From positions 1 through 37,651 of the forward strand of contig JAGQIK010000056.1 of the NCBI GenBank assembly GCA_020431405.1: a stretch of 37,651 nucleotides of DNA. The letters are read 5' to 3'. Each line of letters starts with the position of its first letter. Position 1 is the stretch's first letter. This DNA is from Myxococcales bacterium. GTDB taxonomy: Bacteria; Myxococcota_A; Polyangia; GCA-2747355. The position numbers were made by a program, and so were the translations under genes. The notes beneath the pieces are model-generated. The model was not told the DNA's origin. It saw only the letters and a list, made by a program, of their open reading frames with translations, and made no database searches. Positions 3,114 through 36,870 of this stretch are shown here, in pieces.

Positions 3114-3118
3114 GACTG

Positions 3119-3140
3119 CTTGATCACCTACGTGATCAAG
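3119..3140 (+). terminator. Perfect 9-bp hairpin just after the Cys-rich lipoprotein gene
   Basis: CTTGATCAC, four bases (CTAC), then GTGATCAAG form a perfect stem 6 bp after the stop codon. No T-run follows directly. A second, GC-rich hairpin with a T-rich loop lies 17 bp further on, at 3157. Together they probably end transcription or protect the 3' end. The symmetric TGATCA arms could also be a protein-binding site. Confidence 0.5.
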
Positions 3141-3155
3141 CGCCCTAGAATACGG

Positions 3156-3264
3156 TAGGGGGGCTTTTTTCAAGCCCCCCTCGCCGCGCGAAGTGAATCC
3201 GCGCGGCTCACCCCCGAGGCGCTCGCTTTGCTCGCGGTCGCGCCGCCGTCAAGCGGCGCTCCGT
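3156..3264. repeat. Composite multi-hairpin repeat, copy A
   Basis: Non-coding element made of successive hairpins. The first is 3157-3166 paired with 3172-3181 (10 bp, AGGGGGGCTT/AAGCCCCCCT, T-rich loop). The second is 3183-3190 with 3200-3207 (8 bp, GCCGCGCG/CGCGCGGC, loop AAGTGAATC). The third is 3240-3246 with 3253-3259 (7 bp, GCGCCGC/GCGGCGC, loop CGTCAA). The same order and nearly the same bases recur at 36740-36870. The first hairpin resembles a strong terminator. The element ends about 30 bp before the next gene. Confidence 0.85.
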
Positions 3265-15055: not shown

Positions 15056-16408
15056 CTAACGGCACCAGCTCGGCGGGCTGGCATAGCTCGCGGCGGCGCA
15101 GCAGCGCCTGATGGCGCCGTGCATCGCGGCGGTCGAGGGGCCGCACAGCCGCTCGGATAGGCAAAGCGCCATCGCCGCGTTGGCTCGCGTGGCGTGCTTC
15201 ATCATGCCGCTGGTCGCTGCCGGCGTTCGGCCCGCCTCGGCGCGACAGACCGTCAGCGCGTAGCGCAGCCGTCGCGCCGCCGAGACGGCCGGCGGCGGCA
15301 CGCGCTGCGGCTGCGGGTAGAGATGCACCCGCAGCAGCTTGGCCTTGCTGCGGATCGCCGCCAGCACGCGCTGGTCGCGAGCTGCGAGCGCAACGTTCGC
15401 CAGCGACTTGGCCGCCGCCCGGCGCGCCGCGAAGCCGGACGCGTCGTCGCGCAGCACCGCCAGCAGCGCCGCGTGTTGGCTGGCGTTGGCCGCACCACCC
15501 ACCGCCGCGATCGCGTCGAGCACGGTGCGCATACGCGAGGTGTTCTGCCAGCGCCCGTCGCGCGGGATCTGCGCCAGCAGCGCCAACAGCTCGGGCCGGG
15601 CCGCCGCCGCGGTCTTGCCGATCTTGCCCACCGCCCAGGCGATCCGCACGCGGCCATCGACGAGCCCGCGTCCGAGCAGGCCGCGCAGCGCGCTGACCGC
15701 CGGCGCCGCGCCCGCACCGAGCGCTGCCAAGGCGCTCACGGCGGCGCTCCGATGGCGCGCGTCGGTCAACAGTGGCACCAGCGCTGTGGCCACCACGGCG
15801 CCGCGGCCGCGCGCGGCGCGCACGGCGTCGATGGCGCGCCCGCACAGTGGGTGCGTCTGCACGAGCAGCGGCCGCAAGGCGAGCAGCCCAGCGCGGACGT
15901 ACGGCGCGAGCTCGGCGTAGCGCCCGCAGGTGGTCCGCTCGCGCGCAGCGACCTCGGCCAGCGTGCCGATGGCCGCGCTGGCGCCGCGCTGATCGCGCGC
16001 GCCGATGGCCGCGACGAGCCGCCGGTGCAGCGCGCGCCAGCCGGCGGCCGAGCCCCTGCCGGTGAGGCGGCTGCACAGCAGCTTGGTCATGACACTTGGC
16101 AGCTGCAGCGCGCCGCGCCGCTTCATCGCGCGCAGCACGCGTCGCGCCGCGTGCAGGCCGTACCCTTCGAGCTGATCTTCGGCGGCAAGCTGCAGGCACA
16201 GGTTGCGCCGCTGCCGGCGGTGCACGATCGCGCCGATCATCTGCGGCACCGCCGCGCGCCCACGCCGGCGCCACTTTCTACGCGCGCGCGCGGCCTCGGC
16301 GCGCTCCGAGTCGGTGCAAAACTGTCCGCCGCCGTGCGCGACGCTGCTCGTGGCGACGGTCACGGCGAGCGCGGCGCCGGCGATCCAGGCGGCTGAGCTT
16401 CGAGTCAT
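15056..16408 (-). CDS. Exported HEAT-like repeat protein (450 aa)
   Basis: The signal peptide (residues 1-26, ending SSVAHG) leads into an all-helical, Ala/Leu/Arg-rich protein. Residues about 150-370 show HEAT/armadillo-like pairs, such as ALVPLLTDARHRSAAVSALA, SALRGLLGRGLVDGRVRIAW, AVGKIGKTAAAARPELLALL and LAVLRDDASGFAARRAAAKS. HEAT repeats are protein-binding scaffolds. The C-terminal 60 residues carry seven Cys (for example CLSERLCGP, IRRCCAAAS and a final WCR), probably disulfide-bonded. The ATG at 16408 has an AGGA site upstream. Its binding partner is not predictable. Confidence 0.7.
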   Translation of the reverse strand: MTRSSAAWIAGAALAVTVATSSVAHGGGQFCTDSERAEAARARRKWRRRGRAAVPQMIGAIVHRRQRRNLCLQLAAEDQLEGYGLHAARRVLRAMKRRGALQLPSVMTKLLCSRLTGRGSAAGWRALHRRLVAAIGARDQRGASAAIGTLAEVAARERTTCGRYAELAPYVRAGLLALRPLLVQTHPLCGRAIDAVRAARGRGAVVATALVPLLTDARHRSAAVSALAALGAGAAPAVSALRGLLGRGLVDGRVRIAWAVGKIGKTAAAARPELLALLAQIPRDGRWQNTSRMRTVLDAIAAVGGAANASQHAALLAVLRDDASGFAARRAAAKSLANVALAARDQRVLAAIRSKAKLLRVHLYPQPQRVPPPAVSAARRLRYALTVCRAEAGRTPAATSGMMKHATRANAAMALCLSERLCGPSTAAMHGAIRRCCAAASYASPPSWCR

Positions 16409-23309: not shown

Positions 23310-24740
23310 ATGAAGCACGCGCGGCGCCCCTACCTCGTTATCACGACACTTCTCGTCGCCTGTGGCTGCACGGCCAAGCTCGACGCGATCAAGCCGCAGG
23401 TGGCGCTGCCGCAGCGCTTTTCGGGCGGCGGCGCGGCCAAGCTGGGGGCGCGCTGGTGGCGAAGCTTCAACGATCCGGAGCTCACGCGGCTTGTCGAGCG
23501 CGCGCTGAGCAAGAGCTTCTCGCTGCGCGCGGCTTGGGCGCGCGTGGCGCAGGCGCGGGCGGTGGCCAAGCGCGAGGGCGCTGCGCTCTACCCGAGCCTC
23601 TCCGTGCAGGCCTCGGGCGGCGGCTTGATCTCGCGCGGACGCGTCATCGCCAGCACCTCGCTGGTCAACGTCTCGCCCTTCGACATCACCGGCCGCGAGG
23701 ACATCTCGCTCGGGCTGGCGGCCAGCTACGAGCTCGACCTGTGGGGCAAGCTGCGCAGCACGCGCGACGCGGCCAAGCTCGATCTGCGCGCCAGCGAGCA
23801 CGATCTGATGGCCGCGGCGATCTCGCTCTCGGCCGAGGTCGCCATCGCCTGGTATCGCCGCGTGGAGCAGGCGGCGCAGCTGGCGCTGCTCGAGACGCAG
23901 CTTCGCACCAACGAGCGCACCCTCGAGCTGGTCACCGTCAGCTGGCAGCGCGGCGCGGTGCGCGCCGAAGATGTCTTTCGCCAGCGCCAGCTCACCGAGG
24001 CCGTGCGCGCGCAGAAGGCGACGGTACAGGCGGCGCTCGCCGTGCAGTCGCACCGCCTCGCCGTGCTCGTCGGCGCCGTGCCCACCGCGGTCGTCGCACC
24101 CGCCGGCGCCAAGACGCTCGTCAAGCTGCCGCCGCTGCCGCGCACCGGCGTGCCGTCGAAGCTGATCACGCGCCGGCCGGACTTGGCGCGTCTTCACGCG
24201 CGCGTGCTCGCCGCTGATCGGCGCTTCGCCGCGGCCGTCGCCGATCGCTTGCCGTCGCTGTCGCTCTCGGCGGGCATCCTCACCAGCGGCCGCGCCGTCG
24301 ACCTGTTCGCCAGCTGGATCGGAAACCTCGCCGCCTCGATCTTCGCGCCGATCCTCGACGGCGGCCGGCGCAAGGCCGAGTCGGAGCGCTTCAAGGCGCA
24401 GCGGCTCGAGCTGCGCCAGCAGTACACGCAGCAGGTGCTCGAGGCGCTGCGCGAGGTGGAAGACGCGTTGATCCGCGAGGTCAAGCAGCGCCAGCTTTTG
24501 CGCAGCATCGCCACGCAGCTGAAGCTCGCCAAGCACGTCATCGAGCGCGTGCACGACAGCTACGTAAACGGCGTGGGTGACTACCTGCGCGTGCTCGACG
24601 CCTACGCGACGTACCAGCAGCTGCAGCGCAACGAGCTCACGGCGCGCCGCGAGCTGATCGAGATCCGCATCGGCCTTTGCCGCGCGCTGAGCGGCGGCTG
24701 GAAGCTCGAGGCGCCGCGCGCCGAGGGGAAACGGTCGTGA
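23310..24740 (+). CDS. RND efflux outer-membrane lipoprotein channel, TolC/NodT type
   Basis: Outer-membrane factor of a tripartite efflux pump, 476 residues from the ATG at 23310 (a GTG sits one codon earlier). The signal peptide ends LLVACGC, so Cys18 or Cys20 would be lipidated as in the OprM/NodT group. Family motifs are WWRSFNDPELTRLVERAL, the helical EREGAALYPSLSV-like segment, SYELDLWGKLRSTRDAA, TRRPDLARLHARVLAADRRF, and DGGRRKAESERFKAQRL in the second half, ending VGDYLRVLDAYATYQQLQRN. It is the first gene of the efflux operon. Its stop TGA overlaps the GTG of the adaptor gene (GTGA), indicating translational coupling. Confidence 0.92.
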   Translation: MKHARRPYLVITTLLVACGCTAKLDAIKPQVALPQRFSGGGAAKLGARWWRSFNDPELTRLVERALSKSFSLRAAWARVAQARAVAKREGAALYPSLSVQASGGGLISRGRVIASTSLVNVSPFDITGREDISLGLAASYELDLWGKLRSTRDAAKLDLRASEHDLMAAAISLSAEVAIAWYRRVEQAAQLALLETQLRTNERTLELVTVSWQRGAVRAEDVFRQRQLTEAVRAQKATVQAALAVQSHRLAVLVGAVPTAVVAPAGAKTLVKLPPLPRTGVPSKLITRRPDLARLHARVLAADRRFAAAVADRLPSLSLSAGILTSGRAVDLFASWIGNLAASIFAPILDGGRRKAESERFKAQRLELRQQYTQQVLEALREVEDALIREVKQRQLLRSIATQLKLAKHVIERVHDSYVNGVGDYLRVLDAYATYQQLQRNELTARRELIEIRIGLCRALSGGWKLEAPRAEGKRS

Positions 24741-35100: not shown

Positions 35101-36017
35101 TCTATCAGCGCGCCTGCGACGCCAACCACATGCCCGGCTGCGTCTATCTCGGGGGTCTGTACGGCAACGGCTCGGGCGTGCGCAAGAACCTCGCGCGCGC
35201 GCTCGAGTACTATCGCAAGGCCTGCGACTGGGGTAACGGCTTCGGCTGCCGCGCGCTCGGCATCGCCTTCGGGCGCGGCGCCGGCGTCAAGCGCGACGTC
35301 GGCGAAGCGGCGCTGCGGCTGCGCAAGGGCTGCAAGCTCGGCGACGCGCAGAGCTGTCGCGAGCTCGGCGGCTTCGCGCTCAACGGCGTCGGCGTCGCGC
35401 GCGACCCTCGCCGCGCGGCGCGCTTGTTTCGACGCGCCTGCGCCGCGGGCGACGCCGATGGCTGCAACGATCTCGGCGCGCTCTACAGCGATGGCCGCGG
35501 CGTGGCGCGCGACGACCGCCGCGCGGCCGGGCATTACCTCAAGGCCTGCAACGGCGGAAACGCCGTCGGGTGCACCAACTTCGCCGTCTCGCTGGCCGAG
35601 GGGCGCGGCGTCAAACGCCAGCCGCGCCGCGCGCGCGTCCTGCTGCGCGCGACATGCGACAAGGGCGCCGCGGGCGCCTGCCACCGGCTCGGCATGATGT
35701 ACGTGCGTGGGCTCGGCGGTCCTCAGAAAGCGGTCGAGGGCAACAAGCTGCTGCTGCACGCCTGCCAGAACCGGCGCCTGCTCGGCTGCGTGAGCCTCGG
35801 CCTGAGCTACCTGCGCGGCCGCGGGGTGAGCAAAGATCCGCGCCGCGCGATGGCGCTCTTCGACAAAGCCTGTCGTGGCAGGCAGATGCACGGCTGCGTG
35901 AACGTCGCCTTGCTGCTGCGCGCGCGCCGCGACAAGCGCGCACACGCGCGGGCGGCCAAGCTGCTCGAGCGTGCCTGCGCGGGCGGCCTCAAATCGGCCT
36001 GCGGCGTGGCGCCCTGA
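32196..36017 (+). CDS. Giant Sel1/Hcp-like repeat lipoprotein (1273 aa)
   Basis: Solenoid lipoprotein with signal peptide ending PLAG-C (residues 28-37 region). After an N-terminal region of about 110 residues come 32 consecutive Sel1-type helical repeats of about 36 residues, consensus A-C-x7-C-x-x-L-G-x-x-Y-x-x-G-x-G-V-x-R-D-x-x-R-A-x-x-L-F-x-K. Of these, 31 have exactly C-x7-C and one (GCKRDASGC) has C-x6-C. This Cys pair is the signature of Helicobacter Hcp proteins, where each repeat is stapled by one disulfide. Here at least 64 Cys would form 32 staples, several times more than the usual Hcp size. One repeat (SCEGKLAQGCYALSLLSKDK) is short. Such scaffolds bind proteins or cell-wall ligands; the target is unknown. 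Confidence 0.88.
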   Translation: MIQVSSPRPRLPRCQRIVRLAPAVLLSLPLLLPLAGCATTSATTGPSGATCKDGPSCLARVNTLIARGARQEAYLLAARTAATDRKASTWFALRKLAYEPMRERAALVRRLQAGCREGGTKAPWTCAGLGVLLQHRRATSAAALSPLERACKQRNDYACTYLASMRGRGAGVPFDPAAAKRLLEGACGRGYLRACSSLGVLYRHGEGVPRDIARARMLYRRACAGGDLKGCFEDAMLYAFALGVKRDFGRALSTSQRLCQQGYVRACNFAGTAYGLGRGVTRDTRRAAKLEARGCRGGFIDGCVRLASYYLDGRGVAADAKKAFELASTACRANANRGCMMLARLRFAGRGCKRDLPKAASLFRTACRGAAQSACAALGEMTLHGFGVKRAPARGIALLQSACDKQHANACEQLAYVYGRGRGVKADPAKALAVLRRACSNKTYEACVTLGAHRFHGRYGPRDRPRAVALYRTACEHGAYLGCFALAALYFSGVGVARDDAKAQALTAKACDGDVAQACFSLGLRYVNGQGVARDDRRALSLFGRACGGGTARACSALAMMYATARGTARDLRRAAPLFEKACRGGDHAACTRLGIMLQEDHRKAGVPHDPRRAVTLFEKGCKGGDSWGCLRLAAALADGAGVTRDDKRAAKLFAKACEAKNHWGCNGLGRLTLHGRGVPRDLTRAHALFERGCKAGNGQSCLWLGRMLADGHGVKADGARALEIFRKACRAGQVVGCDAAATMLRSGKQVARDYAAAAAIYRAGCKAKMAAMCFGLGQMHELGHGVSRDLAAAYALYRTSCQHGHMPGCYVLALAHGDGRHGIARDPARAVALFRRSCEGKLAQGCYALSLLSKDKTKAHALQRRACDGGYADACLVLGRAAFQSSKPSSYQRAAKRFARACALGSATACAHLGRLYVAGGGVKRDYRKARELLEKGCKRDASGCVGLGYLYQEGYGVKRDYSKAGALYQRACDANHMPGCVYLGGLYGNGSGVRKNLARALEYYRKACDWGNGFGCRALGIAFGRGAGVKRDVGEAALRLRKGCKLGDAQSCRELGGFALNGVGVARDPRRAARLFRRACAAGDADGCNDLGALYSDGRGVARDDRRAAGHYLKACNGGNAVGCTNFAVSLAEGRGVKRQPRRARVLLRATCDKGAAGACHRLGMMYVRGLGGPQKAVEGNKLLLHACQNRRLLGCVSLGLSYLRGRGVSKDPRRAMALFDKACRGRQMHGCVNVALLLRARRDKRAHARAAKLLERACAGGLKSACGVAP

Positions 36018-36062
36018 GGCTTGGGCTATACTCGCCGGCGCTCGCGAGGCGGAAGCCCTCGA

Positions 36063-36075
36063 GCCGACGTTCGTA
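36063..36075 (+). promoter_or_regulatory. 13-bp motif upstream of a lipoprotein gene, copy 2
   Basis: Same 13-mer as at 31376-31388, 25 bases before the ATG at 36101. A possible -10 hexamer TATACT lies further upstream at 36027-36032, without a clear -35. Confidence 0.4.
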
Positions 36076-36100
36076 TGCATACACCTTAGGAGGCTTGCAC

Positions 36101-36742
36101 ATGAAGAGACGCGAACAGGTATCGCGACTAGTCGCCGCGCTAGCGCTCTTGCTGGTGCCGGGCTGTTCGAGCGATGACGGCCCGACCAAGGCGCAGAGCA
36201 CCATCGGCCCGGCCGGCGGCAGCGTAACCGTCGGTAAAGCCAGCGTCGTGATCCCGCAAGGGGCGACGGGCACCGACCGCGAGATCGGTATCGAGAAGCT
36301 CGGCTCGGGCTGGCCCGATGCGCCCGCGGGTCTCGAGCTCGCCGGTGACGTCTACGCCTTCACGCCGCACGGCATCGGCTTCGCATCGCCGGTGACCGTC
36401 ACCATCCCGGTCAATGCCACGACCTCGGACGTCAAGCTCTACAAGTACCAGCCGGGCGAGTCGGTGTGGACCGAGGTGTCAGGCGCGACGGTCAACGCCA
36501 GCGACTCGACCATCACCGGGCTGACCTCGAGCTTCTCCGGTTTCTGCGGCATGAAGACCGCGAAGCCGTCGGGCGGCGAGCCCACGCCCGACATGGGCCC
36601 CAGCGGCGACAAAGGCACGCCCGAGAAAGACATGGGCCAGTGTAAGGGCGTCGAGATGCAGTGCGACACCAGCGCCGAGTGCTGCACCGGCCTCGAGTGC
36701 ATCGACATCAGCGGCTACAAGGGCTGCTTCACGCCTAGCTAG
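36101..36742 (+). CDS. ZU5-like domain lipoprotein with a C-terminal Cys knot-like motif (213 aa)
   Basis: The signal peptide ends VPG-C (Cys22). Residues about 33-150 resemble a ZU5-like beta-sandwich (IGPAGGSVTVGKASVVIPQG, then VYAFTPHGIGFASPVTVTIP, then VKLYKYQPGESVWTEV), a module common in bacterial surface proteins. A Pro/Gly/Asp linker follows. The last 35 residues contain six Cys in the order C-x6-C-x6-CC-x4-C-x7-C, similar to small disulfide-knot peptides. A near-ideal ribosome site (TTAGGAGG) stands before the ATG. The stop codon overlaps the first hairpin of composite repeat copy B, which probably ends transcription. The role is likely structural or adhesive, but unproven. Confidence 0.78.
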   Translation: MKRREQVSRLVAALALLLVPGCSSDDGPTKAQSTIGPAGGSVTVGKASVVIPQGATGTDREIGIEKLGSGWPDAPAGLELAGDVYAFTPHGIGFASPVTVTIPVNATTSDVKLYKYQPGESVWTEVSGATVNASDSTITGLTSSFSGFCGMKTAKPSGGEPTPDMGPSGDKGTPEKDMGQCKGVEMQCDTSAECCTGLECIDISGYKGCFTPS

Positions 36743-36870
36743 GGGGGCTTTTCAAGCCCCCCTCGCCGCGCGAAGTGAATCCGCGCGGCTCACCCCCGAG
36801 TCGCTCGCTTCGCTCGCCGGTGCACCTGGCAGGTGCAGCGAGACGGCGCCGCCGTCAAGCGGCGCTCCGT
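36740..36870. repeat. Composite multi-hairpin repeat, copy B
   Basis: Same hairpin order as 3156-3264. The first is 36741-36750 with 36754-36763 (10 bp, loop TTC). The second is 36765-36772 with 36782-36789 (8 bp, loop AAGTGAATC). The third is 36846-36852 with 36859-36865 (7 bp, loop CGTCAA). Between the last two, copy B has an additional hairpin TGCACCT-GGC-AGGTGCA (36821-36837) missing from copy A. It lies between convergent genes and could end transcription from both sides. Confidence 0.85.

What the first reader, a model, noticed from the sequence alone, without database searches (positions are those of the whole stretch)
3156..3264. Composite multi-hairpin element in two copies 33.6 kb apart
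A roughly 109-bp (copy A) and 131-bp (copy B, 36740-36870) non-coding element shares the same ordered hairpins with identical stems and loops (AAGTGAATC and CGTCAA loops). Copy B has one additional hairpin, TGCACCT-GGC-AGGTGCA, that copy A lacks. Both copies directly follow genes for Cys-containing lipoproteins. Conserved loops and a modular gain or loss of a hairpin suggest a mobile palindromic element (REP/MITE-like) or a family of structured 3' ends, not a simple terminator.
Basis: seen in the sequence. Interest (0 to 1): 0.62.

Follow-up and report, generated by a model that had tools for sequence, protein, structure and literature searches.

The report
Multi-hairpin element marking gene 3' ends
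The two copies belong to a family of about 40 scattered multi-hairpin sequences that sit just after gene stop codons in this bacterium, with a core that also recurs in unrelated bacteria; they most likely act in the messenger RNA to end or protect transcripts, although this has not been tested experimentally.

Summary
About 40 copies lie on some 35 contigs of the same 11.2-Mb genome. Thirty-five of 40 sit in sense orientation directly behind a stop codon (P ~1e-26 against random non-coding placement), at two preferred distances (-2 to 11 nt, or 32-53 nt when an extra hairpin intervenes). Host genes are unrelated (rpoD, rpsU, citrate synthase). Base pairs covary strongly: 26 of 30 pairs change on both sides. 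The core (G5-6 hairpin, TCG, variable hairpin, CTCAC4-6) recurs at gene 3' ends in Rhodobacteraceae and the MAG Co_bin.297. Between Gemmobacter-type genomes it stays at orthologous sites while the second hairpin is swapped for another perfect palindrome. REP/RAYT and MITE membership are not supported: several element-bearing genomes lack Y1 transposases, there are no target-site duplications, and orientation is biased. There is no U-tract. Best reading: a sequence-conserved 'hairpin cluster' that works in nascent mRNA as a terminator or 3'-end shield, copied between genes by an unknown route. H1 G-run length covaries with a third C-run, suggesting alternative pairing or an intrastrand triplex. 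Function is inferred, not shown.

The parts
3118..3141 (+). optional leading hairpin H0 of copy A (GCTTGATCAC-CTAC-GTGATCAAGC) between stop codon 3111-3113 and the core
   Evidence: sequence; shared with C404 and C278 copies; folded in MFE
3157..3181 (+). copy A H1: A-GGGGGG-CTT...AAG-CCCCCC-T hairpin
   Evidence: covariation, helix 1; this palindrome occurs at 34 places in the genome, 29 of them in the element
3183..3207 (+). copy A H2: hypervariable hairpin GCCGCGCG-AAGTGAATC-CGCGCGGC
   Evidence: all 6 pairs with two-sided changes
3208..3217 (+). copy A conserved linker TCACCCCCGA with the third tract (C-run 2, 3211-3215)
   Evidence: CTCACCCC invariant or nearly so; length covaries with H1 G-run
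3220..3236 (+). copy A H3: imperfect hairpin CGCTCGCTTTGCTCGCG
   Evidence: helices 4-5; perfected by T-to-G changes in the C518 copy
3240..3259 (+). copy A H4: GCGCCGC-CGTCAA-GCGGCGC hairpin; identity among closest copies continues to GTGCAG
   Evidence: 7 of 7 pairs with two-sided changes; boundary
36740..36742 (+). stop codon TAG of the upstream gene, supplied by the first bases of copy B
   Evidence: ORF 35570-36742
36741..36763 (+). copy B H1
36765..36789 (+). copy B H2 (identical to copy A)
36790..36799 (+). copy B conserved linker TCACCCCCGA
36802..36817 (+). copy B H3
36821..36837 (+). copy B optional extra hairpin H5 TGCACCT-GGC-AGGTGCA
   Evidence: also in C592, C44, C274, C291 copies
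36846..36865 (+). copy B H4 GCGCCGC-CGTCAA-GCGGCGC

Best explanation
It is a family of transcribed, sequence-conserved hairpin clusters carried at mRNA 3' ends. As RNA polymerase leaves a gene, four (up to six) closely spaced GC hairpins (H0 optional, H1, H2, H3, H5 optional, H4) fold in the nascent RNA directly behind the stop codon and either stop the polymerase without a U-tract or shield the 3' end from exonucleases. Shown: folding potential, covariation, sense 3' placement, dispersal to unrelated genes, and a recurrent core in distant bacteria. Inferred: that it is transcribed, and that termination or 3' protection is what is selected. New gene 3' ends acquired it by copying of the exact unit between stop codon and GCTCC(GTGCAG); the copying route is unknown (ectopic recombination or an unidentified transposition).
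For: About 40 copies in one genome; 35/40 sense and within 56 nt of a stop, P 1.4e-26; bimodal spacing explained by H0; 26/30 pairs with two-sided changes, 95.4% paired against 77.6% in shuffles and 37-60% in slid controls; predicted folding of the 120 nt from the element start -65 against -49 kcal/mol at other 3' ends; core found at gene 3' ends in Rhodobacteraceae and Co_bin.297; retained at orthologous sites between ~87% identical genomes while H2 is swapped with complementarity kept in about 9 of 19 pairs. One Co_bin.297 copy directly follows a tRNA-like 3' end, so a transcript end rather than translation appears to be the common denominator. Geometry (hairpins <15 nt apart, <80 nt from the stop, no U-tract needed) equals the hairpin-cluster terminators of PMC8355165.
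Against: No RNA data were available. Some downstream genes start only 23-60 nt after the element, leaving little room for an independent promoter if it terminates. Five copies lack a sense upstream gene, and in Gemmobacter about a quarter face the other way. The genome has ~40 copies for thousands of genes, so it is no general terminator. The covariation alignment was fitted to the model structure, and GC content of the element is higher than of background 3' ends (0.73 against 0.66).
Confidence: 0.6

Rival explanations
1. A non-autonomous mobile palindromic element (MITE/REP-like) that inserts next to stop codons or terminators in a fixed orientation and is merely tolerated there; the hairpins are transposase recognition sites in single-stranded DNA.
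For: Near-identical copies behind non-homologous genes with sharp boundaries at the stop codon and at GCTCC or GTGCAG; patchy distribution with large copy-number differences among relatives; gain or loss of H0 and H5 modules.
Against: No target-site duplication; 12 Y1 transposase genes of the genome lie on contigs without the element, and five element-bearing genomes have no Y1 transposase; orientation bias; positions conserved between Gemmobacter-type genomes; absent from viral contigs, and copy A has no match in phage or plasmid records.
Confidence: 0.22
2. A DNA-level structural element: G-run, C-run 1 and C-run 2 (with H2 as a compact loop) form an intrastrand triplex or cruciform that stalls RNA polymerase or replication behind the gene.
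For: Run lengths covary: 6/6/5 or 5/5/4 in this genome (Spearman 0.87, n=23) and 6/6/6 or 5/5/5 in Gemmobacter (0.56, n=22); [quoted passage not shown]
Against: Tracts of 5-6 with a 25-35 nt loop are outside the published search definition; E. coli triplex motifs show no strand bias and no terminator activity; the correlation is equally explained by alternative RNA pairing of the G-run with C-run 2, or by concerted slippage.
Confidence: 0.12
3. Ordinary chance palindromes or a mutational by-product (template switching that perfects hairpins) in a GC-rich genome, with no selected function.
For: H2 is replaced wholesale by other perfect palindromes, as template-switch mutation would do.
Against: Conserved linker, H1 and placement would not survive by mutation alone; the H1 palindrome pattern has 34 sites against 0 for the reversed-pattern control.
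Confidence: 0.06

Closest known systems
Hairpin-cluster intrinsic terminators without U-tract (Gupta and Pal 2021, PMC8355165; compare the tandem shapes of GeSTer, from memory)
   Same: Several hairpins <15 nt apart within 80 nt of the stop codon, GC-rich genome, no U-tract.
   Different: Those clusters share no sequence around the stop codon; here a conserved scaffold (AGGGGG..CCCCCT-CG-H2-CTCACCCC) recurs in about 40 copies and across distant bacteria.
REP / BIME palindromic repeats with RAYT (PMC3733652)
   Same: Palindromic repeats biased to the downstream side of genes, thought to act as RNA.
   Different: Composite ~108 bp rather than 20-40 bp, no GTAG/CGTC tag at the hairpin foot seen, no Y1 transposase in several element-bearing genomes, one fixed orientation to the gene.
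Intrastrand triplex motifs (TM/PIT, PMC4666352)
   Same: Three G/C tracts of matched length on one strand, intergenic, about 20-40 copies per genome.
   Different: A hairpin (H2) replaces the short second loop; strong strand bias; five to six triads at most.
TIRYT terminal inverted repeats with GGGGWSAS (PMC3733652)
   Same: The bottom strand reads GGGGTGAG, which fits the loose consensus.
   Different: The TIRYT-like gene of this genome (L122) is flanked by GGGGTCACTCT repeats unrelated to the element.

Membership tests
Hairpin-cluster terminator | hairpins within 80 nt of a stop codon, sense | tested here: met
   35 of 40 copies, -2 to 53 nt
Hairpin-cluster terminator | hairpins separated by <15 nt | tested here: met
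   H1-H2 1-2 nt, H2-H3 about 13 nt, H3-H4 3 nt
Hairpin-cluster terminator | RNA-seq drop or 3' ends at the cluster | not testable with these tools
   no transcriptome of this organism
Canonical intrinsic terminator | stem followed by a U-tract | tested here: not met
   2 of 37 copies
REP/RAYT element | linkage to a Y1 (RAYT) transposase | tested here: not met
   12 Y1 loci all on contigs without the element; none in G060, G062, G415, G419, G421
REP/RAYT element | short single palindrome tagged GTAG or CGTC | tested here: not met
   alignments show a composite of four hairpins and no such conserved tag at a hairpin foot
MITE | target-site duplication | tested here: not met
   25 copies, no flank repeat above permutation
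MITE | terminal inverted repeats matching a transposase gene in the genome | not tested
   only Y1 transposases were examined
Intrastrand triplex motif | three tracts of 6 or more with loops of 1-6 nt | tested here: not met
   tracts 4-6 and the second loop is the H2 hairpin
Intrastrand triplex motif | matched tract lengths | tested here: met
   correlated lengths in two genomes
Rfam family | score above a gathering threshold | tested here: not met
   no hit in the window; only far sub-threshold hits in loci

The most novel reading that the evidence does not exclude
A previously undescribed 3'-end RNA module, shared by myxobacteria-like and Rhodobacteraceae genomes, in which the G-run of the first hairpin alternates between two C-runs (or forms a triplex with them), so that the 3' end works as a switchable or factor-read terminator, with a hypervariable but always self-complementary second hairpin.
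Probability: 0.2. Interest if true: 0.75.

Novelty: new variant of a known kind. Interest (0 to 1): 0.45.

Why it matters
How high-GC bacteria end transcripts without U-tracts is poorly understood. A hairpin cluster with a conserved sequence scaffold, found in distant lineages and locked to gene 3' ends, gives a handle for finding a shared mechanism or factor. The second hairpin, which is swapped between orthologues yet nearly always stays paired, is also a clear natural case for studying how palindromes are rewritten during evolution.

Tried and rejected
Rfam at gathering and relaxed thresholds: nothing relevant. Viral contigs, and phage and plasmid records with copy A: absent; the Rhodobacteraceae core finds only Paracoccus aminovorans plasmids, again directly behind a gene. 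RAYT/TIRYT origin: examined and rejected. Lipoprotein-specific role: rejected, since hosts include rpoD, rpsU and citrate synthase. Stop-codon-targeted insertion: TAG is only slightly enriched (25/33 against 84/151, p=0.05). Gene paralogy as the reason for shared elements: rejected, one homologous upstream pair among 39 segments. Literature searches for the Rhodobacter GAGGATATTT tail, for repeats in myxobacteria and for conserved 3'-end repeats found no description.

Full report
Observation. Both copies are in the window as described. Copy A is 3156-3264 and copy B 36740-36869; B carries the extra hairpin at 36821-36837. In B the stop codon TAG is the first three bases of the element; in A a 43-nt stretch with another perfect hairpin (H0, 3118-3141) separates stop codon and core. 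Both fold much better than shuffled sequence (z -6.9 and -5.0).

Family in the genome. A BLAST-type search and a covariance model (R1) built from five copies find about 40 copies on some 35 contigs. The order is constant: H1 (A-G5/6-CT..AG-C5/6-T), CG, H2, CTCACCCC(C), (A/G)ATGTCG, H3, H4, ending GCTCC. H2 comes in unrelated sequence versions that are nearly always self-complementary. H0 and H5 are optional; H5 occurs in five copies, once with a different stem. The H1 palindrome pattern occurs at 34 places, 29 of them inside the element, while its reversed-pattern control has none.

Placement. With a codon-usage gene caller trained on the same genome, 35 of 40 copies lie in sense orientation behind a gene, at -2 to 11 nt or, when H0 intervenes, at 32 to 53 nt from the stop codon. 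Random placement in non-coding DNA would put 12.7% there; P(35 of 40 or more) = 1.4e-26. The host genes are unrelated: rpoD, rpsU, citrate synthase, an NtrC-type regulator, protein kinases, a GNAT acetyltransferase, a cytochrome c. Sequences beyond the element are not homologous among copies, apart from one upstream pair and a few downstream pairs. The closest pairs share sequence exactly from stop codon or AGGGGG to GCTCC or GTGCAG: for example C290 and C217 have cores that differ by one base inside the element but different H0 hairpins. No target-site duplication is seen.

Structure is selected. On 42 copies, 26 of 30 modelled pairs show changes on both sides; 95.4% of cells pair, against 77.6% in shuffles and 37-60% in slid controls. 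The alignment was fitted to the structure, which favours it, but independent MAFFT alignments show the same compensations, for example GGCGGC/GCCGCC, GGAGCC/GGCTCC and GCGGGC/GCCCGC, and GAG/CTC with GGG/CCC.

Beyond the genome. Only a few relatives hold it. An exact pattern search in GTDB contigs and a 65-nt core model (R2) find the same core at gene 3' ends in the MAG Co_bin.297 (22 hits) and in Rhodobacteraceae (up to 48 hits per genome), there with a GAGGATATTT tail, and a variant in one genus of the same phylum. Whether these are homologous or convergent cannot be decided; the shared TCG-H2-CTCACCCC layout and the run-length covariation argue for a common kind. In two Gemmobacter-type genomes about 87% identical, about 18 of 40 sampled elements are at orthologous sites; H1 and the tail stay, while H2 is replaced by another palindrome in about nine of 19 aligned pairs and lost in one (counted by eye). 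In Gemmobacter-type genomes about three quarters, and in Co_bin.297 all located copies, are in sense behind a gene; one copy directly follows a tRNA-like 3' end, so transcript ends rather than stop codons seem to be the common denominator.

Third tract. The length of the H1 G-run correlates with the C-run after CTCA: 6/6/5 or 5/5/4 here, 6/6/6 or 5/5/5 in Gemmobacter. This fits alternative pairing, an intrastrand triplex of the kind catalogued in PMC4666352, or concerted slippage; the data do not separate these.

What it most likely does. The geometry equals the hairpin-cluster terminators inferred from RNA-seq in PMC8355165: several hairpins less than 15 nt apart, within 80 nt of the stop codon, without U-tract. 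U-tract terminators are rare at the other sampled 3' ends of this genome too (3 of 59). I therefore favour action in nascent mRNA as terminator or 3'-end shield (confidence 0.6). This is inference: no transcript data exist for this organism. The spread to unrelated genes is shown; its route is not. RAYT-driven transposition is not supported.

Known or new. It is not in Rfam and no description was found in the searched library, which misses most subscription papers. It fails REP, MITE and canonical-terminator membership tests. I file it as a new variant of the hairpin-cluster 3'-end kind, the variation being the conserved sequence scaffold, its dispersal as a unit, and the third tract.

Noticed in passing
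L102, L104, L109 (own genome), and downstream of the copy in L082: Another dispersed hairpin, (TAG)CAGGTTGCTGAAAAAG..CTTTTCC..GCACCTGCT, sits directly behind stop codons, sometimes as the H0 of the element and at least once without H1.
   Followed up: no
L097 (C515, around 23436-23517): The element is flanked by a direct duplication of about 90 bp of a neighbouring gene's 3' end.
   Followed up: no
L095 (C212:1-260): Head-to-tail partial copies of the element (H2 to H4 units) at a contig end.
   Followed up: no
own genome, 151 background genes in fetched loci: TAG is the commonest stop codon (84 of 151), which seems unusual for a genome of this high GC content.
   Followed up: partly
L122 (C699, Y1 transposase gene): A TIRYT-like transposase gene flanked by inverted GGGGTCACTCT repeats, fitting the GGGGWSAS consensus of PMC3733652.
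   Followed up: partly
L100, L106 and other own loci: Short GGCCCGA / ACGGGCC heptamer-like tandem arrays recur in intergenic regions near several copies.
   Followed up: no
L191, L195, L196 (genus g156): The core variant is nested inside a larger palindrome (GTCTGAACAATTG...CATTATTCAGAC), which looks more MITE-like than in the window's genome.
   Followed up: partly
window 16179-16257 +: tRNA-Gly (GCC) gene.
   Followed up: no
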